Source: a virus
Direction: 5' to 3' (one strand)
Length of the DNA stretch: 34,650 bases
Virus record (IMG/VR): IMGVR_UViG_3300037558_003017
Coordinates: 1-34,650 of that record
Shown here: positions 16,695 to 33,058 of the stretch, piece by piece
Position numbering within the stretch: position 1 is the stretch's first letter
Layout: each line of letters begins with the position of its first letter
The notes under the pieces: model-generated
Databases searched by the model: none
What the model was told of the DNA's origin: nothing
The model's input: only the letters and a program-made list of their open reading frames with translations
Translations under genes and position numbers: made by a program

Positions 16695-17536
16695 TGACCT
16701 TTCAGAGTTTGGATAGTGGATTGCAGCAGCGCTGCGATTTCATTGGTGCCAGCGCTGGGCGTGGCCGGTGGGTCGGCAGCGCCAGGCGTACCGGAAAACA
16801 GATTCTTGAACACGTCCTTGCGAACCGAGCGGGAATGCCCGGCCTTCGCCATCGCCACATCGATGAGCGCCTTGGCGCGCTGCTGGCTATTGGCCTTCGG
16901 ATCGGACTTGATATCGGCGGCCGAGAGCATGCCGGTGGCAAACCCGTCCCGGATCGCGTCTGCCGGCGTCAGCCAGGTTTCCTTGTCCATCATGTCCGCC
17001 ACGGTCTCCGACGAAAGACCGGTGCGGGCGGCGTACAAGCTCGCCATGGAGGCGTCAAACGTCGCCATGACCTCAGCCGAATCGGCCAGGTCGTGACGAT
17101 TGCCGACGACGACAGCCCAGGCGTTGTGGATCATCAGGTGAGTCCCCTCACCCATCCGGATCTCATCACCGGCCATGGTGATGATGGAGCCGGCGGACGC
17201 GGCCAGACCCAGCACATTGACGGTCACCTTGGCCTTGTGCTCGCGCAGCAGGTTGTAAATCGCCACGCCCTCGAAGAAGTCACCGCCCGGCGAATTCACG
17301 TTGACCGTAACATCGCGCTCGCCGATGGCGCGCAGGGCAGCCGAGATACGACGAGCGGTCACGCCGTTGCCGTCCCAGGTGTCACCGATAGCGCCATAGA
17401 TGGAAATCGACGTGTCAACGTCCTCCTTGGCGGCGCGAATCTCGGGATTCCAGCGTTCCAGCGCATCCGCAGGCATTTCGAATTCGCCGCTCAGCCGGTG
17501 GTCAGCCTTGATTTCAGGGAGCTTTAGGTGGCTCAT
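16691..17536 (-). CDS. Prohead maturation protease, ClpP (S14) family
   Basis: 281 aa. The ClpP core spans about 40-215: NSPGGDFFEGVAIYNLL (81-97), nucleophile Ser114 in LAASAG, and His137 in MIHNAW; the acid residue is probably Asp184 or Glu186 in MMDKETWLT. It should cut the delta domain off the capsid protein during head maturation. The C-terminal 60 residues are hydrophilic and may be lost by self-cleavage. It overlaps the portal gene by 23 bp and the capsid gene by 4 bp. Confidence 0.95.
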   Translation of the reverse strand: MSHLKLPEIKADHRLSGEFEMPADALERWNPEIRAAKEDVDTSISIYGAIGDTWDGNGVTARRISAALRAIGERDVTVNVNSPGGDFFEGVAIYNLLREHKAKVTVNVLGLAASAGSIITMAGDEIRMGEGTHLMIHNAWAVVVGNRHDLADSAEVMATFDASMASLYAARTGLSSETVADMMDKETWLTPADAIRDGFATGMLSAADIKSDPKANSQQRAKALIDVAMAKAGHSRSVRKDVFKNLFSGTPGAADPPATPSAGTNEIAALLQSTIQTLKGQ

Positions 17537-18770
17537 TGTTGGGTGCCTTTGACATTTGGTTCTTCAGTGAATTGGCTTGCGGCTCGTCCGACTCAGGCAG
17601 GTCGCTGAGCTTTCTCACCTCGTTTTGCGTCATCCATGGGGCCTGGCCGCCTGCGCCCAGCGCCTTGGTGAAGAAGTTCGCTTGTGCCTCCAAGGTGCCG
17701 CGCAGCAGAGCGCGCTCGTTGAACTTGAACTGCAGCTGATCGAGTTCGGATTCGGTCAGCAGGACGCGGGCGGCCGACTGTTCCCAGTTCGTGAATCGGA
17801 AGGCCAGTGCGTACTGCACAAAGAAAATAGCCAGCTGCTCAATGCCGCTGCCCCAGGCGGTGTCATCCATCATCATCAGCGGGCGCGGCACACCGAAAGC
17901 GCGGGCGACCTCCTCGATCTGCATGCCGCGATTCTCGACATGCTGGGCGGCGGATGCCGTATCGGAGAACTTGCCGGCCTTGCCGCCGCCTTCCAGGATC
18001 ATGAATTTCCCAGAGTTCTCGGCGCCGCTGTGCTCGTCGCGCAAGGAATTCTTGATGCGGTCATAGGCCCGATCCGACAACTCATGCGGAAATTCAAGAG
18101 CCCCACCGGCCATGACGCCCGATTCGAAGGTGCGAGACGCCGCCTGCTCGGCCTTCAAGGCCAGATCGATGGCGCCACCCGCGAGGCGAACGCGAGACTT
18201 CCCCTTGATGCCATCCTCGCTGAGGTCACGCAGATGGAAGACCTCATTGGCGGGAAGGACGACGCGCTGGCCGTCTGGCCGCGTGAAGACATAGGTCATT
18301 TCCCATGCGTTCGAGAGCTGCGGCTCTACGCGATCCGGATGCATCGGAATCAATGCCACCGGCCGCGTACCAGACTTGATGACGCGGGCATAAGCATTGC
18401 CCTTGAACATCAAGTGAAACTCCATCAGCCGCTTGAATTCCAGCGGCGTCTGCCAGCTGTTCGGGCGATACTTGAGCAGGCGGAAGGCTGGGTGATCTGT
18501 CGCATAGCCCCGACCGGGGTCGCTGTACATCAGATTGAACGGCAGCATGCCGATGGCTTCGGAAATCAGCGTCACGCAGCGCAGCACCGCCATATTGCGC
18601 AATGCCTTCAGCGCGCCTGGCCCGCCGGTCGCCTGCGAACCCCTCACATACTCCAGAAAGGCCGGATCATTTAGCCCGTTGAATACCAGGCCGCCCACTG
18701 GATCTTCGGCGCGCGGGCGCACTGCTCCCCCGCTCGAACTCGCCGAGCGAAAAATTTTGAACAGATCCAT
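17514..18770 (-). CDS. Portal protein, HK97 family
   Basis: 418 aa. The N-terminal LRNMAVLRCVTLISEAIGMLP, the central GNAYARVIKSGTRPVALIPM and the FGVPRPLMMMDDTAWGSGIE region are characteristic of HK97 gp3-type portals. Twelve copies form the DNA channel at one capsid vertex, bind the terminase and later the connector proteins. The C-terminus (about 395-418) is hydrophilic and low in complexity. It starts 8 bp after the TerL stop. Confidence 0.95.
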   Translation of the reverse strand: MDLFKIFRSASSSGGAVRPRAEDPVGGLVFNGLNDPAFLEYVRGSQATGGPGALKALRNMAVLRCVTLISEAIGMLPFNLMYSDPGRGYATDHPAFRLLKYRPNSWQTPLEFKRLMEFHLMFKGNAYARVIKSGTRPVALIPMHPDRVEPQLSNAWEMTYVFTRPDGQRVVLPANEVFHLRDLSEDGIKGKSRVRLAGGAIDLALKAEQAASRTFESGVMAGGALEFPHELSDRAYDRIKNSLRDEHSGAENSGKFMILEGGGKAGKFSDTASAAQHVENRGMQIEEVARAFGVPRPLMMMDDTAWGSGIEQLAIFFVQYALAFRFTNWEQSAARVLLTESELDQLQFKFNERALLRGTLEAQANFFTKALGAGGQAPWMTQNEVRKLSDLPESDEPQANSLKNQMSKAPNNEPPKAP

Positions 18771-18777
18771 GGATTCC

Positions 18778-20451
18778 TTACGCGTAGCGAATGCCGCGCC
18801 GCTCGTAGATTGTGTTGATTGCCGGCGCCGGGTTCAGCGACAGCAAGGAAATTGCGTTGAAGGTAGCCATCAGTGGGTCGATCTTCGCGGTACCAGAGGC
18901 CTGCTTGGTGATCAGAATGGCGTTTCCTTTGGGCTCTACCTTGGCATTGCTGACGCAGTAATTCATCATCTTCTGCCCGCCATGCACCAGCACGCCCTCC
19001 GCCAGCTTGCGCTCGGTAGTCTTGATGGCGCCGCCAAGCTTCCAGCCCTGCGAAATACCTACGATCTTGTCCTGCGGCACACCGGCCTCGATCAGCGCAT
19101 CCAGAATGCCGCCCATGCCGCCAGGATCGACGCCGACCTTGTCCAGGAGACCGGCTTGCTCGATGGATGCAACCATTTCTGCCATCTCGATCACGTCGGG
19201 GCCGACCGAATCACATATCGTCAGCTCGCCCTGGGCCGCATAGTCCCGCCAGGCCGGGACTTCGGATTTACGCAACTCAAGAGCTGGCGGATTCACCCAG
19301 GCATGCGTCCAGAGCAACCATTCACGGGTTTCCTTGTGACGCCCAGCGGCCGCAAGCCCGAGCCAGTCGTCATTGCCGCCGCCGTCAGCGCCGACATCGA
19401 TCACCTCGCACTCTTCCAGCAAGTCCCTCAGTGTCAAGCCTGGGCGCTTGGCCTGACACTCCCATTGGTCCGCGCCGGCCCACCGATCCGACCGCAGGGA
19501 CAATCCAATCTCTACATTCAGGTGCTTCGCCAGGAATTTCTGCAGCGCCCCGTCCAGCTTGCCCTTGACCTTGTTCAACTGGTCAAGTAGCCACTCAGCA
19601 TTTACTGAGCGCCCGATATTCGGGTTCGTAATGTAAAAATTGGCAGGATCGAGATAGGCCTTACTCCTGATCATCGCGGGCGGGAATTCATACAGCACGC
19701 CCAGAGATTTAGGATCGTGGATCACCCCGTCCCGCACGTTGCGGAAGTAATTAAGCTTCTCCAGGTAGACGCCGGCCGGCGGCTCATCGCTTTGCGTGGT
19801 CAGGAAAATCACCCACCCCTCGTCGCGAGAGACCTGGCCGCCCAGCGCCTCCATGAACATGGCCTCTGCATTGGCTCGCTTGCCAAACAGCCAGTGCTCG
19901 TCGACCAGGATCCGCCCGGACTTCTTCCCTGACACGGTATCCGTATCGGCTGCCACCACTTTCAGCGATGCTCGGGACACCCGATGGGTGATGGTCCGGA
20001 TATGATCCTGGATATGGAACATGGCCGAGAGCTCATCATCGGCGCGGATCATGCCCGCTGCCGGCTTGAAACTGTTATCGGCGACTTCCTTGGTCGGCGC
20101 CAGAATCAGGTGCTCTTCTTCCTCCCGCCAGCACAATAAGACCGCCGTCAGCATGATCCCCGCTGCGATGGTGGACTTCGTGTTCTTCTTGCTGATCAGC
20201 AAATAGAATTCACGAATGAGCTGCTGGCCTGTGTCGGCGTCATAGGCACCGAAGATGGCGGAGACGTAGTCAAACACCCATTGCTCACTGCATTCGCCGA
20301 AGGTGGGCTTGCCGGGAATGTCCACCACGCGCAGCTGCTTGAAAATCGACAGCGCATGCTCGGCTTGGTCACGGAAAATCGGCGGCGGGATGATCGACCG
20401 CCCTTGGACTATCCGCTCCTCCCAGTCAGGTACCGCAGTAGACCACTTCAT
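18778..20451 (-). CDS. terL: Terminase large subunit (Terminase_1 type)
   Basis: 557 aa. ATPase half: deviant Walker A at 86-95 (ISKKNTKSTI, as usual for this family), APTKEVADNSF at 118-128, Walker B ILVDEHWLF at 171-179 with Asp174-Glu175, and the coupling motif FLTTQS at 216-221. Nuclease half: acidic cluster around IDVGADGGGNDDW (351-363) and DPGGMGG further on, giving the RNase H-like metal site. It cuts concatemers and pumps DNA into proheads with TerS. It overlaps TerS by 4 bp. Confidence 0.95.
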   Translation of the reverse strand: MKWSTAVPDWEERIVQGRSIIPPPIFRDQAEHALSIFKQLRVVDIPGKPTFGECSEQWVFDYVSAIFGAYDADTGQQLIREFYLLISKKNTKSTIAAGIMLTAVLLCWREEEEHLILAPTKEVADNSFKPAAGMIRADDELSAMFHIQDHIRTITHRVSRASLKVVAADTDTVSGKKSGRILVDEHWLFGKRANAEAMFMEALGGQVSRDEGWVIFLTTQSDEPPAGVYLEKLNYFRNVRDGVIHDPKSLGVLYEFPPAMIRSKAYLDPANFYITNPNIGRSVNAEWLLDQLNKVKGKLDGALQKFLAKHLNVEIGLSLRSDRWAGADQWECQAKRPGLTLRDLLEECEVIDVGADGGGNDDWLGLAAAGRHKETREWLLWTHAWVNPPALELRKSEVPAWRDYAAQGELTICDSVGPDVIEMAEMVASIEQAGLLDKVGVDPGGMGGILDALIEAGVPQDKIVGISQGWKLGGAIKTTERKLAEGVLVHGGQKMMNYCVSNAKVEPKGNAILITKQASGTAKIDPLMATFNAISLLSLNPAPAINTIYERRGIRYA

Positions 20452-20900
20452 AGCTTCTTACCGCCGGACGCTGCCAGGCGCGGAGGCGCGGCGGTCGGGA
20501 AACGGCTGGCCACTTTCTTGGCTTCCTCGTCCCGAGCATCCTTCTTGCCGCCCTCGCCCAGCTTTTTGTGCATGAACGGCAGCAGCGCCTTGGCTGCATC
20601 GACCCGCAGCTTGTCCTCAGTCAGCGGGTCATTCATTGTTGCCAACAAGAACGAACGAGGATCGCTGTATTGTAATGCGCGGCTAATATCGAAGGGGTTG
20701 CTCGCGACCTCCCCGCCCGGCGCTTTGGTTGCCTCGCGGCACTTTTTCAGATATTCAGCGACCGCAGGGTCTTTAACAAGTCGCGAGCCTGCTGCCGAGG
20801 CAGTCGCGGCACTGTAACCGGCCTCGATAGCCGCGTCCCTGTTGGACTTCCCGCGCATCACCGCATCGGCAAACAGCTTCTTTTTAGCTGTTAATGCCAT
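20448..20900 (-). CDS. terS: Terminase small subunit (Terminase_2 type)
   Basis: 150 aa from the ATG at 20900, which has AGGAG 8 nt upstream; a TTG at 20906 is less likely. LTAKKKLFADAVMRGKSNRDAAIEAGYS at the N-terminus is the DNA-binding helix-turn-helix of the family, split over residues about 3-30, followed by the oligomerisation helices. It recognises the packaging site for TerL. The Lys-rich C-terminus (DARDEEAKKVASRF) is typical. Confidence 0.93.
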   Translation of the reverse strand: MALTAKKKLFADAVMRGKSNRDAAIEAGYSAATASAAGSRLVKDPAVAEYLKKCREATKAPGGEVASNPFDISRALQYSDPRSFLLATMNDPLTEDKLRVDAAKALLPFMHKKLGEGGKKDARDEEAKKVASRFPTAAPPRLAASGGKKL

Positions 20901-21006
20901 TAACAAAACTCCTAAAAGGGGATTTTTTCTGCGCGTGGGAAGGCAAGCGGTTTCCGAGGTTTTACCTCATCAACTTTCGATACCCCCGGCAGGCTTCGCC
21001 GCCGGA

Positions 21007-21327
21007 TCAACCTCCCCTGGCCCGTTCCGCAGCCTCACGCGCCGTCTTCTCGTCATGGTGATCCTTGCAAAGCCCTTGCAAGTTGTCCTGATCGTTGGAG
21101 CCGCCACGCCACAATGGCGTCTTGTGATCGACCTCTACTGCTATGGTCTGTCTGCCTTCTGCTAGGCATGCCACACACCAATGGTCCGATGCGACCAAAG
21201 CATCGGTCTTCATCTTCATCCACTGACGCCCTCGGATGCGCAGCGTCGTGCTAGCCGTAGGCTTATGCATCTGGACGCGGCTAGTCTGGGCTTCATGCAA
21301 GCGCGGTTTCAGGGTTCTCAAACGCAT
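21007..21327 (-). CDS. HNH endonuclease (terminase-associated)
   Basis: 106 aa from the ATG at 21327; a GTG at 21336 is possible. The zinc-binding HNH core is complete: CVACLAEG, then VEVDHKTPLWRGGS with the paired catalytic Asp-His, NLQGLCKDHHDEKT. A short HNH gene next to terS is usual in HK97-like phages, where it is needed with terminase for cos cleavage. That makes a cos site close to this gene likely, though none is identified by eye. GGGAGG precedes the start. Confidence 0.92.
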   Translation of the reverse strand: MRLRTLKPRLHEAQTSRVQMHKPTASTTLRIRGRQWMKMKTDALVASDHWCVACLAEGRQTIAVEVDHKTPLWRGGSNDQDNLQGLCKDHHDEKTAREAAERARGG

Positions 21328-21347
21328 GATAGCCACGCCTCCCTATA

Positions 21348-23288
21348 TCAAAAACCCAACAAAGTCGGAAGTTTGCTAGCAAGATCGGCGGCGACGTATG
21401 TGTGGATTGCTGCCTGCGGATGAGTCGAGTCGAAATAGCCTGCCTGAGCAGTACCATTACAAGGGATCTTCCCGTCTATCACATCGGTAAAGCCAGCTGC
21501 GCCGGCACCCGCGTAGATCGCGTTGTACATATCGTATGCAGCCGTCGGGTCGGCCGCAGTGAACACACCGGCACGCAGATACGGATTGTACGAATCGTAG
21601 CCCGGCGTACCTGGACCCATGAGCGATGTCTGATTTGCCGTTGTCTCCCATGAGTCAGTTGAGCTCGCCTGTGGCGCGAACGTCACTGCGATCAGCGGTA
21701 GTGAGCTAGAGCGGGCCGCGGCACGGATTTTCGCCCAATGATCACGCTGTGTCGCAAGCAAACCTGTCCCGACGGGGCCTGACCATGGGAGGCTACGGTT
21801 GTTGTTGCCCATATTCGTGATCGCAGCATCAGCAAATTGACCTTGCAGAAGACGCTGCGAAAAACCACCATAGAGAGCCGGCACTGTGGCGTTCGTACCG
21901 CTGACTGCTGCCCGCGTCCAGCTATATTTCCCAGTGTTCAGTGCACGATTTACAAAGGCTGTGCAGCCATCTGCATCACCGTACAGCGCGCCGTTCGGCG
22001 TTATGCGGTCTGAATTTTCACGGCCGATGCTGTCGCCGTGATTGATCAGGGACTTCTCGCCGTATGCACCACTTCCATAAACGTTACACGGGCCGCACAC
22101 AACCTGGCCGGCTGTCACACCGCTCAACGTTGTCCAGTCTTTCAGGAAGACTGCAGTACCAGCCCCCGCTTGATCCTTCATCATATCGCCCAGGTCAGTA
22201 CGACCGGATGATACTGGCTGGCTCGGATATTTCGCACCAACAGCCGGCGCGATTTCCCAGCTGACCATGTACCAGGCATCTTTGAGGATGGTGAAGCCAT
22301 AGGCGCGATCTGAGCGAACACGCCAGCCATCCGGAACTGTCAGCGTGTAACCGTCACCAGAAATCGCGCCGCCAGCTGCAGAAAATTCCGCTGTCGTCGG
22401 CTGAGTACCATCCAACTTGAAAATATAGCCCGCCTGGCATGCGGCGGCTCTTGTCCACTTGAGCTGCACCAGAACTGCCGACGATTGATTCTGCCCGGAA
22501 CCCGAAGTATTCAAGAGCAGCGCGGCGCGGATTGGGACAACGTTACCAACACCCTTCTCTTGGGGAGCATTGCTTGTGGCAGCGTCCACATAACCGTTCC
22601 ACCACTCCACCCACGGATCAGTGACGGTCTTGTTTGATCGATCCGCCAGGCGCGAACTCCGGACATTGTTTGCTCCTGCGGTAAGAGCCATGTAAGGCAA
22701 AACCGTCCGCTTCGATGCCGACAAGACCGGCAAGCAGTTCGTACTGCTACCTGTGAGACTGTGCGTGGAACCGCTGGCATTGGTGCCAACCGAATCCAGC
22801 GTTAACGACTTGTTCAGGTCGGAGGGCATCACAACATACGGCAGCGTACCCACCAGCACGCCATTCGCATAGACGTTCGTCGTCACCGACGAGGCGCCGC
22901 TAAAGCTGCCGGCAGTAGCATCCAAGACCTCGAATACCTTCGGCGCTGAGTTGATGGTGGGGGACGCAACAACTGTGGGTGCACCAGAAGGAACGGGCAC
23001 GCTAACGCCATACGGAAGACGAAATACCAGGCCAGTAACGCGGGGAGTGACTGTATAGCCAATATCCGCGCTAGTCAGGGCATAGGATGCTCCTGTAGCA
23101 CCAGCAATATCAGTCGTAGCACCACCAGCAGTCGGGGTACGAGTCCACTGAATAGCAGAATAGTCCCAACCAAAACTCTTGGTCACTGTAACTACGCTTC
23201 CGACCGTATTTCCACTAGAAGTAAAGCCGATGGGGCCACGTCCAAGTCCGAGAATTCCGGCTTCAATCATCGCAGAAGTAACGCTCAT
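21348..23288 (-). CDS. SGNH/GDSL-type hydrolase with N-terminal Ig-like region
   Basis: 646 aa from the ATG at 23288, which overlaps the preceding stop as ATGA. Residues about 30-115 look like one or more Ig-like beta domains (YSAIQWTRTP, then SYALTSADIGYTVTPRV). The C-terminal half carries SGNH blocks: NHGDS with Ser420, MGNNN with Asn496 in the GxND position, and DSTHPQ with Asp620 and His623, giving a complete Ser-His-Asp set. No signal peptide is seen. SGNH enzymes remove acyl or acetyl groups; a virion-borne capsule or O-antigen deacetylase is the best guess. Its place before HNH/terS, away from the tail genes, is unusual. Confidence 0.75.
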   Translation of the reverse strand: MSVTSAMIEAGILGLGRGPIGFTSSGNTVGSVVTVTKSFGWDYSAIQWTRTPTAGGATTDIAGATGASYALTSADIGYTVTPRVTGLVFRLPYGVSVPVPSGAPTVVASPTINSAPKVFEVLDATAGSFSGASSVTTNVYANGVLVGTLPYVVMPSDLNKSLTLDSVGTNASGSTHSLTGSSTNCLPVLSASKRTVLPYMALTAGANNVRSSRLADRSNKTVTDPWVEWWNGYVDAATSNAPQEKGVGNVVPIRAALLLNTSGSGQNQSSAVLVQLKWTRAAACQAGYIFKLDGTQPTTAEFSAAGGAISGDGYTLTVPDGWRVRSDRAYGFTILKDAWYMVSWEIAPAVGAKYPSQPVSSGRTDLGDMMKDQAGAGTAVFLKDWTTLSGVTAGQVVCGPCNVYGSGAYGEKSLINHGDSIGRENSDRITPNGALYGDADGCTAFVNRALNTGKYSWTRAAVSGTNATVPALYGGFSQRLLQGQFADAAITNMGNNNRSLPWSGPVGTGLLATQRDHWAKIRAAARSSSLPLIAVTFAPQASSTDSWETTANQTSLMGPGTPGYDSYNPYLRAGVFTAADPTAAYDMYNAIYAGAGAAGFTDVIDGKIPCNGTAQAGYFDSTHPQAAIHTYVAADLASKLPTLLGF

Positions 23289-23485
23289 GCTGTCCTCGTC
23301 CACTTCGAGATGTTGGTCTTGCTTCCGTTGTAGGCGATGGTCTTGGTGAACACCGCGCCATCGGGACGAGACGCAATGATGCTCACCACTCGATCACTGC
23401 TGTCTTTGGTGATCTCGACATCGCACCACTCCGTCCAGGTATCCGACAAACCCAGCGGGCTATTCAAACCGACATCAGCGAGCAT
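23285..23485 (-). CDS. Hypothetical 66-aa protein coupled to the SGNH hydrolase
   Basis: 66 aa, no family recognised. It is rich in beta-type residues, with WTEWCDVEI and DRVVSIIASRPDG, and looks like a small soluble domain. It overlaps the hydrolase gene by 4 bp and is the first gene after an intrinsic terminator, so it is the first gene of the late block as seen here. The ribosome site is weak (CCGGTG region). It could be a chaperone or attachment partner of the hydrolase. Confidence 0.6.
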   Translation of the reverse strand: MLADVGLNSPLGLSDTWTEWCDVEITKDSSDRVVSIIASRPDGAVFTKTIAYNGSKTNISKWTRTA

Positions 23486-23496
23486 ATGAGCACCGG

Positions 23497-23523
23497 AAAT
23501 AAAAAAGCCCGCACATGGCGGGC
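23497..23523 (-). terminator. Intrinsic terminator in front of the late operon
   Basis: On the - strand GCCCGC-CATGT-GCGGGC is followed by TTTTTTATTT. It ends 11 bp before the 66-aa gene. In lambda a terminator downstream of the late promoter is overcome by Q; this could be its counterpart. The 200 bp to the right (23524-23724) contain short GAGG/CCTC inverted repeats and an AT-rich part near 23590-23615, but no convincing leftward promoter. Confidence 0.8.
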
Positions 23524-23724
23524 AAACCCTCGAGAGAGGCGGGAGGACCTAAAAACCTCGGCGCGCATACACACGCCAATTTCCACAAGACAAGAAAATT
23601 AATAAAAATTTATTAGCTCTTGACTAACTCACTTCTGTGTACAAATCTGTTTGCGCAGTGCGTCAAAAAAGGGGTTTTGAGCAGCTTCTACCAACGAATA
23701 AAACTAGAATTGAAAGGGGTAAAG

Positions 23725-24363
23725 ATGTTACTGAAAAACAAGGTATCCAAGTTCCTTCGCGCTACACTTTTTACCGGAGCGGTTGCATTGTCAGCTCCAT
23801 CGTATGCCGGTCCAGTTTTAGTTTGGGCCACTCAACTTGACTCTGATAACCTTGTTCTCTATGAGTCAGGTCTTTATGGCCCTACCTATGGATCAGTGGT
23901 GCAACACTTTAATTGGCAACAGCAGCAAGATCAGACAACGGTTTTCTCAGCACTCGCAACGGTAAATAGCTTCGCCCTAAGGTGGCTGCCAGACAAACCT
24001 TCCTCCAGCAGCTTAGTGGTAAAGCTCTATCATGCAGACTTACCAACTCTTCCTGACCTTTCCAACCCGATTCGGATTTTGACTTTCAATGACCCAATAC
24101 CTAGCTACAGCTCGCCATATACGACGATAAACTTGTCATCAGGAATCAACGCAATCTCTTTTAGCCTCACCAACCCTGACCCATCCAAGTCCTACAGTTT
24201 CGGGTTCACGCTTGGACTCTCAGAGTTCAACCCAACGTCTGCGGTCCCTGAAGCACCTGCATCAGCAATGTTTCTGGGAGGACTCGGTCTGGTAGGAGTG
24301 GCCGCCTGGCGTCGTAAGCGATTTGCAACGCCAGAAGCTTCCTCGCGACAGGCCTTTGCGTAA
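23725..24363 (+). CDS. PEP-CTERM sorting-domain protein (moron)
   Basis: 212 aa from the ATG at 23725, which follows AAAGGGG and gives a clean signal peptide (1-28, cleavage after SYA). The C-terminus has VPE at 174-176, a hydrophobic segment (about 179-194, SAMFLGGLGLVGVAAW) and RRKR at 196-199: the PEP-CTERM tripartite signal recognised by exosortase in exopolysaccharide-making Gram-negatives. The motif reads VPEAPAS rather than the usual VPEPAS, and 13 residues follow the basic cluster. The middle is not recognised. It is on the strand opposite to the phage genes and visibly more AT-rich, with TTGACT at 23620 as a possible -35. A lysogenic-conversion cargo gene is the best reading. Confidence 0.82.
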   Translation: MLLKNKVSKFLRATLFTGAVALSAPSYAGPVLVWATQLDSDNLVLYESGLYGPTYGSVVQHFNWQQQQDQTTVFSALATVNSFALRWLPDKPSSSSLVVKLYHADLPTLPDLSNPIRILTFNDPIPSYSSPYTTINLSSGINAISFSLTNPDPSKSYSFGFTLGLSEFNPTSAVPEAPASAMFLGGLGLVGVAAWRRKRFATPEASSRQAFA

Positions 24364-24376
24364 AAACATGAAGAAT

Positions 24377-24402
24377 GCCCGCATGCTCTTGTAGCTGCGG
24401 GC
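24377..24402. terminator. Hairpin after the PEP-CTERM gene
   Basis: GCCCGCA/TGCGGGC arms (7 bp) enclose a further GCT/AGC pairing. It is 14 bp beyond the + strand stop codon. Neither side has a strong U-tract (the - side has ATTCTTCATGTTTTT), so it is a plausible but weak bidirectional terminator. Confidence 0.45.
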
Positions 24403-24435
24403 AACATCTAGCACCCCGAAAAAGATTTGAAGCCT

Positions 24436-24510
24436 GGAGCGTCAGGGGAGAATCGAACTCCTCTTCATCTGTTTGGAAGGCAGCGGCTCTGCCATTGAGC
24501 TACAGACGCG
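24436..24510 (-). tRNA. tRNA-Gly(TCC), degenerate
   Basis: 75 nt including an encoded CCA. The order is acceptor GCGTCTG, D arm GCTC/GAGC, anticodon loop CTTCCAA (anticodon TCC), T loop TTCGATT and discriminator T as expected for glycine. Mismatches are visible at 6-67 (T-T), 27-43 (G-A), 31-39 (C-A) and 49-65 (A-C). The anticodon stem keeps only three central pairs. It may be a phage tRNA tolerating mismatches or one decaying. It lies after a strong terminator, so it needs read-through or its own promoter. Confidence 0.75.
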
Positions 24511-24518
24511 CAAAAAGA

Positions 24519-24550
24519 AAAAGCCTCGTTCGGATGATCGAGGCTTTTTG
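24519..24550. terminator. Strong bidirectional terminator
   Basis: An 11-bp perfect inverted repeat (AAAAAGCCTCG/CGAGGCTTTTT) has a 10-nt loop. On the - strand it runs into T5-C-T5. It lies 17 bp after the stop of the 144-aa leftward gene and just upstream of the tRNA. Confidence 0.88.
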
Positions 24551-24567
24551 AAGTGTCTTATCGGGCT

Positions 24568-25002
24568 TCACACCAGCAGCTGCGTGAAGTGCTCCACCTG
24601 GTGCGCGGGCACAACGAAAGGAACGAATTCTGCACCGTTCGTTGCCAGCCAATAGGAACGATGACGACCATTCATAAATTCGTACAAGCCTGGCACCTTT
24701 TCATACACCACACCCATGTCTAGCGCTCTTCCTTGGCCTTCCCTGAGCGAATCCAAACGCGCCAACTTGTCGGGGTACGGATTAAATCCGCGTGGGGGAT
24801 CGCCGTAGCTGCCGTTTGCGAACTCCGCGTCTTTGAGCCAAGCCAAAACCTTCTCAGGCGTCGCCTTGAGAATTGCCCAACCTTTGCCGGACTCAGCTTG
24901 GCCGTTATAAGTCCTGACGTTATGTAATGCATCTTCATACATCACGACCTTGCCGCCAGCAGCCCCAGTAGCGAACACTTCCATTTTATCGCCATATGCC
25001 AT
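24568..25002 (-). CDS. Hypothetical protein with GRHR motif, self-contained cassette
   Basis: 144 aa from the ATG at 25002, with GAGGAG 7 nt upstream. No family is recognised with confidence. The C-terminal NGRHRSYWLATNGAEFVPFV resembles the GxxR-type motif of ParB/sulfiredoxin-like domains and of plasmid fertility-inhibition-type proteins, but this is only a hint. The gene has its own likely promoter (25028-25036), a terminator upstream (25066-25092) and a strong terminator downstream (24519-24550). This is the classic insulated arrangement of a moron, although it reads in the lytic direction. Confidence 0.65.
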   Translation of the reverse strand: MAYGDKMEVFATGAAGGKVVMYEDALHNVRTYNGQAESGKGWAILKATPEKVLAWLKDAEFANGSYGDPPRGFNPYPDKLARLDSLREGQGRALDMGVVYEKVPGLYEFMNGRHRSYWLATNGAEFVPFVVPAHQVEHFTQLLV

Positions 25003-25027
25003 GGATATTCTCCTCAGTTGAGAATAA

Positions 25028-25036
25028 ATATTACCA
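25028..25036 (-). promoter_or_regulatory. Extended -10 promoter for the 144-aa gene
   Basis: TGGTAATAT on the - strand matches an extended -10 (TGn plus TAATAT, 4 of 6). It lies 26 bp upstream of the start codon. No good -35 is seen (TTCATT at 17-bp spacing). Confidence 0.5.
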
Positions 25037-25065
25037 CACGGCAAAAATCAATGAATTCTTGCACC

Positions 25066-25092
25066 AAAATAAAAACCCGCCGAAGCGGGTTT
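25066..25092 (-). terminator. Intrinsic terminator upstream of the 144-aa gene
   Basis: An 8-bp stem AAACCCGC/GCGGGTTT with a TTCG loop on the - strand is followed by TTATTTT. It would stop leftward transcripts arriving from the Q side. The next 237 bp (25093-25329) hold no gene; a CCCGA/TCGGG inverted repeat lies at about 25270-25287 and weak promoter-like AT-rich sequence precedes it. Confidence 0.75.
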
Positions 25093-25329
25093 AGGATGAT
25101 GCTCGATACTTGAGGAAATTCGCGACAGTCCAGAGCTATCTGCCAAGTGACCTCGCTTCCGTGAATGCCTTCAAATATCAACACTCGTTTCATTAGCTTG
25201 AAAAGGTCCAAGCTATATGAACAGAGTCGATTTTGAGGGGTAAAAGTCCGGTCGTCAATAAATTTTTTCCCGACCGCACATTCGGGAATTAGATGTTAGA
25301 GAATTCATGCCATCGATTTCGAGGATGTC

Positions 25330-26592
25330 ATGCCCGCACCTACCTTTTTCCTTTCTTCGACCATATACGATTTCCATGATCTTCGCAGCGCTATTAAATT
25401 CTACTTGGAGCAGCAAGGTTGCTTAGTTCTTGCCTCAGAATACAGCGATTTTGCGCCATCCTTGGCAGAGCACTCCTACGATGCATGTCTGGAAGCAATT
25501 GGCAGGGCTGACTACTATGTTCTCCTGATCGGCACCAGGGTTGGCGGCCTGGTCAATAAAGATCAGAAAGTTAGCATCACTCGGCAAGAATACCGCGCGG
25601 CGTATGAACTCCATAAACGAGGTAAATTGAAGCTACTCAACTTCGTCAGGCGTCAAGTCTGGGACTACCGTGAAACGCGAAATGAACTCATCAGCTATTT
25701 GAAGCAGGTCGCAATTGCTGAGACGGAACGAGAAGCCGTCGGGAATCATCCAACGAAGTTTGCTAACGATGCTGAGTTCATCTCTGGATTCATTAACGAG
25801 GTCGCTCGAAATCAGGAAACAAAAGAAGCACTTGCTTGCGCGGGTGACATGCCCACTAACAACTGGATATATCAATTCGATACATTTAGAGACGTAATTG
25901 ATGCACTGCGAAGCCAAGTATTCAAAGGAAGTCCCCTTGAACATGCCGTTCTGAGGAAACATCTCCAAAGTGAACTGAAGGAGATCGCCAAACTTTGTCT
26001 AATTAAGAGTAGAGGCATGCTATTCCCGCCTACGATGTTGATTAACGGCTTCAGGGACAATTACCCTCTCAATTGGCCCACAGAACCTGATGAAGTCAAA
26101 GTTATTGTCGGAGAAGATTGGAAATATATTCGCCTCTGCGCGGCACACCTCCCAGCTATGAGTTTTGGGAATATTCCTATCTTGCGAAAAGTACTTGAAT
26201 CAGATCTCATGCTGGAGTTTTCCCCGGCTAACTCTGACTTCATAGAAAGCGCCCCCTATAAACTTCTGTACCAACTTGTGCGTACCATTGACATCTTCAA
26301 ATTGGAAGATCGCCAAGAGTTACTTAGAATTATCCTGCCCCGTCAGGGCAACGACGACGAACTGATAAACGTTAAAACGGAGGATCTGATTCGGATTGCC
26401 CATCTATTTGACAGATGGGATGACATTTTTGCGCTCTCGACTGCTTTGCTCATTTACTTAAAAACAGGGGAAAACAAGTCGCCCAATCTCCGGCCGAAAT
26501 CCCCGATTCAAGCCGACAATGAGGAATTCGAGCGGGAGACGATCAGTGATGCAGAGCTTTATCAGCTTTTAGATGAGATCAATTCACAATGA
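25330..26592 (+). CDS. DUF4062-domain protein, candidate anti-phage defence moron
   Basis: 420 aa. Start ATG 25330 has GAGG 5 nt upstream. Residues 6-19 (FFLSSTIYDFHDLR) match the FVSSTxxDxxxER start of DUF4062; CLEAIGRADYYVLLIGTRVG (53-72) and SITRQEYRAA (82-91) complete the domain, a Rossmann-like, TIR-related N-terminal module often fused to NTPase or repeat domains in defence proteins. Residues 170-420 are not recognised and show no Walker motif. It stands alone, opposite to the lytic genes and convergent with the Q-position gene, and is more AT-rich than its neighbours. Prophages often carry defence genes here. Function is inference. Confidence 0.8.
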   Translation: MPAPTFFLSSTIYDFHDLRSAIKFYLEQQGCLVLASEYSDFAPSLAEHSYDACLEAIGRADYYVLLIGTRVGGLVNKDQKVSITRQEYRAAYELHKRGKLKLLNFVRRQVWDYRETRNELISYLKQVAIAETEREAVGNHPTKFANDAEFISGFINEVARNQETKEALACAGDMPTNNWIYQFDTFRDVIDALRSQVFKGSPLEHAVLRKHLQSELKEIAKLCLIKSRGMLFPPTMLINGFRDNYPLNWPTEPDEVKVIVGEDWKYIRLCAAHLPAMSFGNIPILRKVLESDLMLEFSPANSDFIESAPYKLLYQLVRTIDIFKLEDRQELLRIILPRQGNDDELINVKTEDLIRIAHLFDRWDDIFALSTALLIYLKTGENKSPNLRPKSPIQADNEEFERETISDAELYQLLDEINSQ

Positions 26593-26606: not shown

Positions 26607-27173
26607 TCAACCTTTATGTAGATCGTATTTTCGTAGGACTATGTTGTGAGCTTGGGCGACGATCTCGTGATACCGCGATTTGCCGACCGCCAGCAACCGG
26701 GCCTTCATGTCGCGACCGCGGACGATCACGATGGTTTGCCGGACCGCGGCACGCTCCAGGTGATGCATCACGAACGCCTGACGATGCTTGTCAGGCAGCG
26801 AAACCACGATGCGTTCGAACATCACAGCGGCACGCTCGTCGCAAGGCTCAGCGTAACCGGGCGACGCGCCCTTGTAAGCAAAACCGAGGGGGCATTTAAA
26901 ACCCGTTGGCAACCAGTCCCGCTTACGCCCCCAGCGAATCCAATTTTCAATCTCGTAGTGCAAGATAGCTTCCACCTCGCGCGTCTTCAGTTCCGCATCT
27001 TCCATCAGGCCTCCTGCCTTTACGCTTTGAAATTCAACATGGTTTGCCGGATCGCCATACCGGCCGTAGTACTTCGATTCAAGCGCCCTGCTCTTCTCTT
27101 TTCCCTCACGCACTAACATGGCCTCTAAGCGCAATGCGAGGCGTTGTTTGCGATCATCCTTCTCTGCGCTCAT
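26607..27173 (-). CDS. Putative late-gene antiterminator (Q-position, sigma-r4-like)
   Basis: 188 aa from ATG 27173, with GAAAGGA 7-8 nt upstream. The C-terminal third (IVVSLPDKHRQAFVMHHL, then ARLLAVGKSRYHEIVAQA) has the layout of sigma-70 region 4-like helix-turn-helix found in phage antitermination Q proteins. It is the last gene of the replication block, where lambda has Q. If so, it would modify RNA polymerase near the late promoter so that it reads through the terminators placed in the late region. Family identity is not certain; a DNA-binding late activator is the alternative. Confidence 0.65.
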   Translation of the reverse strand: MSAEKDDRKQRLALRLEAMLVREGKEKSRALESKYYGRYGDPANHVEFQSVKAGGLMEDAELKTREVEAILHYEIENWIRWGRKRDWLPTGFKCPLGFAYKGASPGYAEPCDERAAVMFERIVVSLPDKHRQAFVMHHLERAAVRQTIVIVRGRDMKARLLAVGKSRYHEIVAQAHNIVLRKYDLHKG

Positions 27174-31593: not shown

Positions 31594-31763
31594 TTCCCGC
31601 CTCGCTTGGCCAAAACAACGAGCTTTGCCGCCATGGCCGTGACGAATGCCGGGCGGTCATAGGCAATCTGGTATTCTTGAACAATCAGGCGGATCGCTTC
31701 TGAGGGTGGGGATTCGAGGAACCGATCCAATTTCGAATCAATAACTACAAGGTCATTAGCCAT
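31587..31763 (-). CDS. Hypothetical 58-aa early phage protein
   Basis: 58 aa, reading MANDLVVIDSKLDRF at the start and VLAKRGGKC at the end. GAGGAC lies 5-6 nt before the ATG. The end overlaps the 87-aa gene by 7 bp, supporting a coupled leftward pair. Its start codon shares the palindrome CATG (31761-31764) with the start codon of the divergent DUF4145 gene. No family is recognised. Confidence 0.6.
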   Translation of the reverse strand: MANDLVVIDSKLDRFLESPPSEAIRLIVQEYQIAYDRPAFVTAMAAKLVVLAKRGGKC

Positions 31764-32397
31764 GGCTGTCCTCGTTCATGATTGCCCGCATTGCGGCGCT
31801 CGAAATGCTAGTTTCGATTGCAGTCGCGCCTCCATGCACCCTCGGCACAACCACAGGTGGAACGTGTTGGGTAGCTGCCCAGCTTGCGATGGACCCATAT
31901 GTTTCGTCGCAGAGGTAGTGACACTTATCTCTCCCACTGACCTGAAAGGAAACTTGGCTGATCACACGAGAATCGATGTGAGAATTTGTAGCCAAGTATT
32001 CCCAATCAGGGGAAAGTCTCTTGCTCCTAAAGATGTGCCAGACGCGGCCGCCGATGCCTTTGTAGAAGGCTGCGAGAACGCTAAAGACGGTCGCTATAGT
32101 TCCGCTGTTATGATGTTTCGACGGGCGATTGACGTCGGAACCAAAGTCTTTGAGCCGACTATTGACGTTCACAACCTCGGCAAGCGAATTGACAAGCTTG
32201 AAAAGGACGGTCTTATCACAAAGGACCTGAAAGACTGGGCACACAAGATCCGCCTTGAAGGTAATGAAGCGGTCCACGACTTGCCCAAGCCAACGAAAGA
32301 GCAGACCGAAGAACTCCAGCTCTTCACCGAGCTGGTTCTGACTTACCTCTTCACTTTGCCTGCGAAGATCAAGGCGAATCTGCCCGCCACTGAGTAA
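31762..32397 (+). CDS. Zinc-ribbon/DUF4145-domain protein
   Basis: 211 aa. CPHCGARNAS at 8-17 and CPACDGPICF near 39-48 form an N-terminal zinc ribbon. The C-terminal domain (about 90-195) has GRYSSAVMMFRRAIDVGTK and DWAHKIRLEGNEAVHDLPKP, the signature of DUF4145. This domain is found alone in prophages and fused to restriction-type nucleases, which suggests but does not prove a defence link. It is opposed to the lytic genes, divergent from and touching the 58-aa gene, and has AAGG 9 nt before its ATG. Confidence 0.85.
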   Translation: MAVLVHDCPHCGARNASFDCSRASMHPRHNHRWNVLGSCPACDGPICFVAEVVTLISPTDLKGNLADHTRIDVRICSQVFPIRGKSLAPKDVPDAAADAFVEGCENAKDGRYSSAVMMFRRAIDVGTKVFEPTIDVHNLGKRIDKLEKDGLITKDLKDWAHKIRLEGNEAVHDLPKPTKEQTEELQLFTELVLTYLFTLPAKIKANLPATE

Positions 32398-32429: not shown

Positions 32430-32636
32430 TCAGCATGCGTCATCACCGGCTGCGATTGCCGCGCCAGCTTCGTCAAACAAATCAGGCCGCACCAACCTTA
32501 TGTACATAAGGCGCGCTTTAGGGATCCCGGTTTTGCGCCAACCTGACACCGATGCAGGATCAATGTCGAACATCAGCGCAGTCTTAGAGGTTCCGCCGAG
32601 AGCATCGATGATCTGGGAGTGGAGTGGATTTTCCAT
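32430..32636 (-). CDS. Cro-like regulator (YdaS/Cro helix-turn-helix)
   Basis: 68 aa. The helix-turn-helix runs about 12-45: DALGGTSKTALMFDIDPASV, SGWRKTGIPKARLMYI. This is the YdaS/Cro form usual for lambdoid Cro-position proteins in Gram-negatives. It is divergent from the repressor gene across the operator region and is the first gene of the leftward early transcript. The promoter -10 ends 6 nt before the ATG, so the mRNA is predicted to be leaderless, and no ribosome site is present. Confidence 0.85.
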   Translation of the reverse strand: MENPLHSQIIDALGGTSKTALMFDIDPASVSGWRKTGIPKARLMYIRLVRPDLFDEAGAAIAAGDDAC

Positions 32637-32642
32637 TCCATA

Positions 32643-32671
32643 ATTTTAGGCTCGCCTAATTTTTGACGCAA
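32643..32671 (-). promoter_or_regulatory. Early leftward promoter (PR-like) of cro
   Basis: On the - strand TTGCGT, 17 bp, TAAAAT. The predicted start of transcription is at or next to 32636, the first base of the cro ATG. The first operator (32646-32659) overlaps the -10 and the spacer, so repressor binding there would block it. Confidence 0.65.
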
Positions 32672-32738
32672 TGTTTATTTTAGGCATGCCTAACATCCTA
32701 AATGTTAGGATTGCCTAACTTTTATTAGGAGCGCCTTA
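32646..32738. promoter_or_regulatory. Immunity operator region (four operators)
   Basis: Four 14-bp sites of the TTAGGCNNGCCTAA type: 32646-32659 (TTAGGCTCGCCTAA), 32680-32693 (TTAGGCATGCCTAA), 32705-32718 (TTAGGATTGCCTAA) and a weaker one at 32725-32738 (TTAGGAGCGCCTTA) that overlaps the ribosome site and start of the repressor gene. The last site suits negative autoregulation. Confidence 0.85.
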
Positions 32739-33058
32739 TGACCTGGAATGACCGACTCAAAGAAGCACGTGCCAAACGCGGGATTACCAAGTCGGATTTA
32801 GCAAAGACGGTGGGGGTCAGCGCCCCAACCATGACCGACTGGGAAAGCGGCGAAATTAAACGTATTGATGGTGAAAACTTACTGAAACTATCTGATGCTC
32901 TTGGCGTTTCGCCACACTGGCTGATATGGGGAAAACAGACAGCGACATCGGCCGATACCGAATCTAATGAAATTGCACTAGCTATCTCACGATTAACGGA
33001 CACAGCTCAACGAGATGCAATTGTCACTCAATTGAAGGCATTTGGAGTTCTCCAATAA
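32738..33058 (+). CDS. Immunity repressor (CI-position), XRE family
   Basis: 106 aa. The XRE helix-turn-helix covers about 5-60: RLKEARAKRGITKSDLAKTV, then SAPTMTDWESGEIKRI. The last 40 residues are a short helical tail; there is no LexA-like Ser/Lys peptidase domain, so RecA-driven self-cleavage is not expected. AGGAG lies 6 nt before the ATG, within operator 4. It diverges from the Cro-like gene, and its probable operators recur at the PL-like promoter. It should hold the prophage silent by blocking both. Confidence 0.85.
   Translation: MTWNDRLKEARAKRGITKSDLAKTVGVSAPTMTDWESGEIKRIDGENLLKLSDALGVSPHWLIWGKQTATSADTESNEIALAISRLTDTAQRDAIVTQLKAFGVLQ

What the first reader, a model, noticed from the sequence alone, without database searches (positions are those of the whole stretch)
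25330..26592. Stand-alone DUF4062 gene in an opposing moron slot: candidate prophage defence system
The 420-aa product starts with a clear DUF4062 module (FLSST at 7-11, LLIGTRVG at 65-72, SITRQEY at 82-88). In known cases this TIR-like module is an N-terminal sensor or effector domain in defence and NLR-type proteins. Here about 250 residues of unrecognised sequence follow, without a Walker A motif, so it is not a standard NTPase fusion. The gene is convergent with the Q-position gene, has its own ribosome site and is more AT-rich than the phage genes: signs of cargo expressed in the lysogen. The defence role is inference.
Basis: partly seen in the sequence, partly recalled or inferred. Interest (0 to 1): 0.75.

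Follow-up and report, generated by a model that had tools for sequence, protein, structure and literature searches.

The report
Prophage-carried TIR-like NADase defence gene
A dormant bacterial virus carries, in a swappable cargo slot, one gene for a protein with an NAD-destroying-type enzyme head and an unfamiliar tail that probably senses rival viruses; its nearest studied relatives kill infected cells to stop phage spread, but this version's own trigger is unknown and untested.

Summary
Window 25330-26592 (+) is a real 420-aa gene: PF13271/DUF4062 at aa 7-91 (E 5e-15), with full-length homologues at 25-43% identity in several phyla. The N-terminal ~200 residues are predicted to fold as a TIR-like domain. 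E87 is invariant in all 27 aligned sequences and sits at the catalytic Glu (E97) of KpSwz, the DUF4062 NADase of the Swarozyc antiphage system (preprint PMC13174449, May 2026). The C-terminal ~220 residues form a confident helical domain with no sequence or fold match found, and no sequence similarity to the portal-binding AUX domain of KpSwz. The gene has no conserved partner; the gene alone is shared between unrelated genomes. Homologues lie beside Pycsar, Gabija, type II R-M, AbiH and PDC-M54A genes, and in a second phage beside bSEFIR. In the window it occupies a moron slot of a lambda-like temperate phage, antisense to the lytic genes. A sister prophage, 97.8% identical up to 178 bp before the start codon, carries different (HEPN-like) cargo there. 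Best reading: a prophage-encoded, stand-alone abortive-infection NADase, a distinct clade and new sensor variant of the DUF4062/Swarozyc kind. Trigger, enzyme activity and expression in the lysogen are untested.

The parts
25330..26592 (+). Stand-alone DUF4062 gene, 420 aa
   Evidence: 27-member full-length alignment
25330..25932 (+). TIR-like N-terminal domain (aa 1-201), probable NADase effector
   Evidence: PF13271 aa 7-91; AF2 model, VIA Z 14.0 to SPARTA TIR, 12.4 to SARM1 TIR
25588..25590 (+). Codon of E87, predicted catalytic Glu (equivalent of KpSwz E97)
   Evidence: invariant in 27/27; aligned with the mutated E97A position of the PDB 10wc chain and with Glu in KpSwz relatives
25933..26589 (+). 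C-terminal helical domain (aa 202-420), likely sensor/oligomerisation part, no known match
   Evidence: AF2 of aa 173-420 pLDDT 88.7, pTM 0.81; no PDB or viral fold match
25321..25325 (+). GAGGA ribosome-binding-like sequence, 4 nt before the ATG
   Evidence: sequence
25152..25153 (.). Cargo junction: 97.8% identity to sister prophage L052 ends here and different cargo begins
   Evidence: blastn
25073..25092 (-). Terminator-like hairpin + T-run between the PFIN-like gene and the DUF4062 gene
   Evidence: 5 terminator-like sites found, 3.1 expected by shuffle; this one has the longest stem
24568..25044 (-). Slot neighbour: 158-aa gene, weak PFIN (plasmid fertility inhibition) similarity
   Evidence: E 4.1e-5, below Pfam cut-off; 98.7% in L052
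24435..24509 (-). Slot neighbour: tRNA-Gly (tcc), conserved at the same place in L052, L050, L054
23620..24363 (+). Slot neighbour: PEP-CTERM-motif surface protein gene
   Evidence: PF07589 E 2e-4, above cut-off; 100% in L052
26607..27173 (-). Q-position gene on the early side of the slot, convergent with the DUF4062 gene
   Evidence: no family match
17514..20906 (-). Portal, large and small terminase genes (phage head module on the late side)
   Evidence: PHROG matches
32430..33058 (.). Cro-like (32430-32636, -) and CI-like (32738-33058, +) helix-turn-helix genes: temperate phage
   Evidence: read from the translations; not family-tested

Best explanation
It is a single-gene abortive-infection defence carried by a temperate phage. 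The N-terminal TIR-like DUF4062 domain is an NAD+ hydrolase held inactive in the lysogen. The C-terminal domain recognises a component of an incoming phage and gathers the protein into an active assembly. NAD+ is then depleted and the infected cell stops before new phage is released, protecting the sister lysogens and so the prophage. Shown here: gene, domain, predicted fold, conserved catalytic Glu, stand-alone nature, defence-gene neighbours, swappable slot. Inferred from the experimentally studied relative KpSwz (PMC13174449): NADase chemistry and abortive outcome. Inferred with little direct evidence: that the C-terminal domain is the sensor, what it senses, and that antisense lytic transcription keeps the gene off during the phage's own induction.
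For: DUF4062 match. TIR fold at Z 11-14 to SPARTA, SARM1, AbTir and plant TIRs. E87 and the SST, GxRxGG and ITxxE motifs invariant or nearly so in 27 homologues; E87 aligned with KpSwz E97, which is needed for defence and NADase activity (PMC13174449). Homologues beside Pycsar PycC + 2TM (L012), GajA/GajB (L019), type II R-M (L015), PDC-M54A (L027) and bSEFIR in another phage (L037); AbiH next to it and a CBASS phospholipase within about 8 kb on an Agrobacterium plasmid. No recurring partner gene. Gene-only sharing between Synechococcus and Ideonella (82% DNA identity over the gene, no flank) and between Thermomonas and Pseudoxanthomonas. Sister prophage L052 is 97.8% identical up to 25152 and then has other cargo; L050 and L051 have other antisense genes there.
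Against: No activity test. The C-terminal domain is unrelated in sequence to KpSwz AUX, so the trigger cannot be transferred. No promoter above chance. Only two viral contigs (the window and L037) were found to carry this clade, so phage carriage is rare. Many homologues sit next to housekeeping genes, and no control rate for defence-gene neighbours was measured.
Confidence: 0.72

Rival explanations
1. A nucleotide N-glycosidase (NDT/DNPH1/MilB-like) that hydrolyses or exchanges (deoxy)nucleotides, either as phage nucleotide metabolism or as a dNTP-depleting defence.
For: The N-terminal model matches DNPH1 and MilB (Z 12.8-13.0) about as well as TIR domains. NDT enzymes also use a Glu in this fold (established knowledge; PMC13174449 reports the distant NDT similarity of DUF4062).
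Against: The two DUF4062 proteins with demonstrated activity in PMC13174449 (KpSwz, TEP1) hydrolyse NAD(P)+. Recognisable special neighbours are defence genes, not nucleotide metabolism.
Confidence: 0.1
2. A moron for another lysogenic trait (host fitness or signalling) in which the TIR-like domain is a non-enzymatic interaction module.
For: The same slot holds a PEP-CTERM surface protein gene, i.e. not only defence cargo. Three of four human DUF4062 proteins tested (NWD1, NWD2, NPHP3) showed no NADase activity (PMC13174449).
Against: E87 and its motif are invariant across phyla. Defence-gene neighbours, gene-only transfer.
Confidence: 0.1
3. An anti-defence or superinfection-interference factor that works during lytic growth against host or rival TIR/NAD systems.
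For: It lies in a phage genome.
Against: It is antisense to the lytic genes; most homologues are on chromosomes and plasmids, not phages.
Confidence: 0.05
4. A decayed or silent passenger gene without present function.
For: No promoter found. One relative (L033) is split into two frames.
Against: The frame is intact over 420 codons, with all invariant residues of the family kept.
Confidence: 0.03

Closest known systems
Swarozyc (KpSwz; PDB 10wc, 11cq, 11cv; PMC13174449)
   Same: N-terminal DUF4062 TIR-like domain with the catalytic Glu at the same place; single gene; auxiliary C-terminal domain; found in defence loci; KpSwz relatives also on 35 viral contigs
   Different: Separate clade (99/88 support); C-terminal domain without sequence similarity to AUX; 420 aa against 284 aa for the A. 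junii relative and a 326-aa solved KpSwz chain; trigger unknown
SARM1 / SPARTA / AbTir TIR NADases
   Same: TIR fold of the N-terminal part (Z 12-14)
   Different: Only 12-18% identity over the structural alignment; no APAZ/Ago or ARM/SAM parts; single protein
Tha of staphylococcal prophages (PMC11087260)
   Same: Works-like comparison: a prophage-encoded, phage-protein-triggered defence placed antisense to a lytic transcript
   Different: Tha is a HEPN RNase with an overlapping inhibitor gene (ith-1); no such inhibitor gene was identified here
Variable defence slots of P2-like phages and P4-like satellites (PMC9122126, title and abstract only)
   Same: One locus of a phage lineage holds different antiphage or cargo genes
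   Different: Different phage type (lambda-like, HK97-type head) and position (between the Q-position gene and the terminase side)

Membership tests
DUF4062 (PF13271) | Match to the Pfam profile above the curated cut-off | tested here: met
   55.9 bits against 24.7; 27 of 27 homologues match
TIR-like domain superfamily | Parallel beta-alpha TIR/flavodoxin-like fold | tested here: met
   AF2 model, Z 10-14 to many TIR domains; NDT-type enzymes score alike
DUF4062 NADases | Catalytic Glu (KpSwz E97, TEP1 E1008) | tested here: met
   E87 invariant and aligned with the E97 position
DUF4062 NADases | NAD+ hydrolysis to ADP-ribose and nicotinamide | not testable with these tools
   needs enzyme assay
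Swarozyc (KpSwz-type) | C-terminal AUX domain homologous in sequence | tested here: not met
   Profile of the family matches the KpSwz chain only over the DUF4062 part (5-107); C-terminal stretch -1.4 bits; BLAST with a KpSwz relative stops at aa 197
Swarozyc (KpSwz-type) | AUX winged-helix/HTH fold | tested here: inconclusive
   The AUX structure is not known to be in the structure library (cut-off April 2026); the model shows helices with beta hairpins, no match
Swarozyc (KpSwz-type) | Same DUF4062 clade as KpSwz | tested here: not met
   The window family is one side of a 99/88-supported branch, KpSwz on the other; long branches elsewhere in the tree
Swarozyc (KpSwz-type) | Activated by phage portal protein | not testable with these tools
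   needs co-expression or escaper sequencing
Swarozyc (KpSwz-type) | Single-gene system | tested here: met
   no recurring partner among neighbours of about 30 homologues; gene-only sharing
NLR/STAND proteins with DUF4062 | NACHT/NB-ARC ATPase with Walker A | tested here: not met
   no GK[ST] in the sequence; no ATPase family match
Catalogued defence systems (PADLOC 2.0.0) | Match to a model | tested here: not met
   only AbiEi E 0.034; PADLOC 2023 predates Swarozyc

The most novel reading that the evidence does not exclude
A clade of stand-alone DUF4062 NADases distinct from Swarozyc, whose C-terminal domain is a so far undescribed sensor fold reading a phage component other than the portal stalk, and which in prophages is coupled to the life cycle by lying antisense to lytic transcription, so that it guards the lysogen but is shut off on induction.
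Probability: 0.3. Interest if true: 0.68.

Novelty: new variant of a known kind. Interest (0 to 1): 0.52.

Why it matters
DUF4062 became an antiphage NADase only in 2026, with one C-terminal sensor type studied in depth. This protein and its roughly 30 relatives pair the same catalytic head with a different C-terminal domain, spread across phyla as a single mobile gene, and here ride on a prophage. That makes a direct test possible of whether DUF4062 is a general effector joined to different sensors, and of how a prophage avoids its own virion-triggered defence. It also marks a cargo slot of this phage lineage as a place to look for further defence genes.

Tried and rejected
Close relatives in IMG/VR with the protein alone: none. 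INPHARED phages: only a weak 22% match on two Acinetobacter contigs; the one looked at carries bacterial genes. PADLOC match to AbiEi, E 0.034 over 46 aa: rejected as chance. Coatomer hits of the family and C-terminal profiles, E 0.27-0.3: rejected. C-terminal fold: PDB Foldseek best E 0.48, viral library best E 0.075, VIA best Z 9.8 to designed helical bundles, which is within the noise for helical models. C-terminal domain without DUF4062: none in 398 genomes of the phylum, where DUF4062 itself is in 33. Rfam: only the tRNA. Promoter scan: at chance. Repeats flanking the cargo that could mark an insertion: only weak repeats; the inverted repeat 25092-25113/26579-26600 brackets the gene but is only 73% complementary and I take it as chance. 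Related-phage cargo: no Pfam match and no PADLOC match beyond a weak Csm6 hit (E 0.036) for the L052 HEPN-like protein; L050 has only sub-threshold Pfam hits; no PDB match for the L050 and L052 proteins. The Swarozyc supplement could not be read, so it is not known whether this architecture is listed there.

Full report
OBSERVATION. The ORF 25330-26592 (+) encodes 420 aa from an ATG with GAGGA 4 nt upstream and ends 14 nt before the convergent gene 26607-27173 (-). Pfam gives DUF4062 at aa 7-91, E 5.1e-15, and nothing else. PADLOC 2023 gives nothing credible. The gene has GC 46.2% and GC3 0.49, against GC3 0.70-0.85 for tail, portal, terminase and capsid genes. The window is a virus record of 34,650 bases. 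It carries endolysin, J-type tail fibre, tape measure, major head protein, head protease, portal, both terminase subunits, HNH nuclease, helicase and replication-initiation genes, and CI-like and Cro-like genes near its right end (read from the translation). It is therefore a lambda-like temperate phage; no integrase was identified, and the record may be cut.

FAMILY. Full-length homologues are on plasmids of Methylomonas (42%), Agrobacterium (39%) and Rhizobium (33%). A scan of 84,980 genomes found 30 loci in Pseudomonadota, Planctomycetota, Cyanobacteriota, Bacteroidota, Myxococcota, Acidobacteriota and others. One further viral contig, L037, carries it. Twenty-seven sequences align over the whole length. 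Invariant residues are concentrated in the first ~190 positions: S9 S10 T11, G68, R70, G72 G73, T84, E87, Y92, N178 W179. In 399 genomes of the order of Ideonella, chosen because it holds the gene, only that genome had a full-length match, while 12 others matched only the DUF4062 part. In 398 genomes of its phylum DUF4062 is in 33, and the C-terminal profile only in the same one genome. The architecture is rare, and in this sample the C-terminal domain was not seen without DUF4062.

STRUCTURE. AlphaFold2 with the 27-row alignment gives pLDDT 86. The N-terminal part (2-201) matches TIR domains: SPARTA TIR-APAZ Z 14.0 (132 aligned, 2.6 A), AbTir 12.5, SARM1 12.4, plant TIRs 10-13. It also matches DNPH1/MilB and NDT enzymes at Z 10-13. 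The C-terminal part predicted alone (aa 173-420) has pLDDT 88.7 and pTM 0.81: helices with two beta hairpins. It matches nothing credible in the PDB or the viral library.

LINK TO SWAROZYC. A 2026 preprint (PMC13174449) shows that DUF4062 is a TIR-like NADase. KpSwz defends E. coli by NAD+ depletion and abortive infection, needs E97 and its auxiliary domain, and is activated by the Bas14 portal, to which the AUX domain binds. The window protein matches the solved KpSwz chain over aa 6-88 (E 0.0042; family profile E 4e-4). E87 of the window falls on an Ala of that chain. I infer that the chain is the E97A mutant used for the structures: the closest natural relatives have Glu there (L146 SYTEKEF, A. 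junii YTEMEY), and a numbering offset of 13 gives residue 97. BLAST with the A. junii relative runs over aa 7-197 and then stops. In a tree of DUF4062 domains the window family is one group apart from KpSwz (99/88). So it is the same effector type in a different clade with a different C-terminal part. It is not filed as Swarozyc proper.

STAND-ALONE MOBILE UNIT. No neighbour gene recurs beside the homologues except integrases and plasmid replication or plasmid-borne genes. Synechococcus (Cyanobacteriota) and Ideonella (Betaproteobacteria) share only the gene, 1.3 kb at 82% DNA identity, with unrelated flanks; Thermomonas and Pseudoxanthomonas likewise, at 78%. The tree agrees. The gene therefore moves and presumably works alone.

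NEIGHBOURHOOD. PADLOC hits next to homologues: a PycC cyclase and 2TM effector upstream in Thermomonas (L012), GajA/GajB beside it in a Rhodospirillaceae MAG (L019), type II restriction enzyme and methyltransferase in Synechococcus (L015), PDC-M54A nearby on a Rhizobium contig (L027) and, in phage L037, bSEFIR directly downstream. On the Agrobacterium plasmid AbiH is adjacent and a CBASS phospholipase is about 7 kb away. In Morganella the gene follows a tyrosine integrase downstream of an SmpB-like gene (by inspection). L037 holds small and large terminase-like and portal-like genes upstream of the homologue (by inspection). Other homologues lie among housekeeping genes, and I have no control rate, so this is supportive and not a measured enrichment. 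PMC13174449 reports about 20% of bacterial DUF4062 genes in defence islands and over half beside a defence gene.

SLOT. Related prophages were found through the terminase and the Q-position gene. L052 is 97.8% identical to the window from 18868 to 25152, including the PEP-CTERM gene, tRNA-Gly and PFIN-like gene, and then differs. In place of DUF4062 it has two genes, the second with a HEPN-type RHWLAH motif. L050 (97% terminase) has a 392-aa gene and L051 (95%) a 397-aa membrane-type gene there, both antisense to the late genes as in the window; L038 has a 125-aa one. L054 has none of comparable size. The slot between the Q-position gene and the terminase side is thus a real cargo slot, and the DUF4062 gene is exchangeable cargo. 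The tRNA-Gly is part of the phage lineage.

MECHANISM. Shown: gene, fold prediction, catalytic Glu, stand-alone nature, slot. Inferred from KpSwz: NAD+ hydrolysis and abortive infection. Inferred only: that the C-terminal domain senses an incoming phage protein and drives assembly. The gene lies antisense to the lytic genes, so transcription running from the Q-position side towards the late genes would cross it. By comparison with the antisense-regulated Tha system of staphylococcal prophages (PMC11087260) this could keep it silent during the phage's own induction. No promoter above chance was found on either strand, so this remains a proposal.

VERDICT. The finding is a new variant (distinct clade, unknown sensor domain, prophage-borne) of the newly described DUF4062 NADase defences.

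Noticed in passing
window 23620-24363 (+): A PEP-CTERM-motif (exosortase-type) surface protein gene inside the phage slot, identical in sister prophage L052; a sortable surface protein as phage cargo.
   Followed up: partly
window 24435-24509 (-): tRNA-Gly(tcc) in the slot, conserved at the same place in L050, L052 and L054 (and as a diverged copy in L038): a lineage-specific phage tRNA at the cargo slot.
   Followed up: partly
window 24568-25044 (-): 158-aa gene with weak similarity to PFIN (plasmid fertility inhibition), below the Pfam cut-off; possible inter-element competition gene.
   Followed up: no
window 31762-32397 (+): DUF4145 gene on the opposite strand in the early region, weak PADLOC match to PD-T7-4 (E 4.8e-4); a second candidate defence moron, with a 75% identical relative in L038.
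   Followed up: no
L052:2079-3165: Two-gene cargo in the same slot of a near-identical prophage; second protein has a HEPN RHWLAH motif, no database match: candidate new HEPN defence pair.
   Followed up: partly
L050:4860-6038 (-): 392-aa antisense cargo gene with an RVVAKH (Rx4H) motif and no family match in the same slot.
   Followed up: partly
L051:7783-8976 (-): 397-aa antisense cargo gene with membrane-helix-like segments in the same slot, no family match.
   Followed up: partly
L037:10001-12920: In another phage a DUF4062 homologue and a bSEFIR gene sit between the portal-like gene and the next head-region genes, on the late strand: two NAD-type defence genes inside the head operon.
   Followed up: partly
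L175-L209: KpSwz-type (Swarozyc) relatives occur on 35 viral contigs, one 88% identical to the Acinetobacter junii plasmid copy; Swarozyc itself appears to be common prophage cargo.
   Followed up: no
window 21348-23303 (-): 651-aa esterase-like protein (PHROG lysophospholipase L1-like) located upstream of the terminase genes, with different proteins that start alike at the same place in L050 and L054.
   Followed up: no
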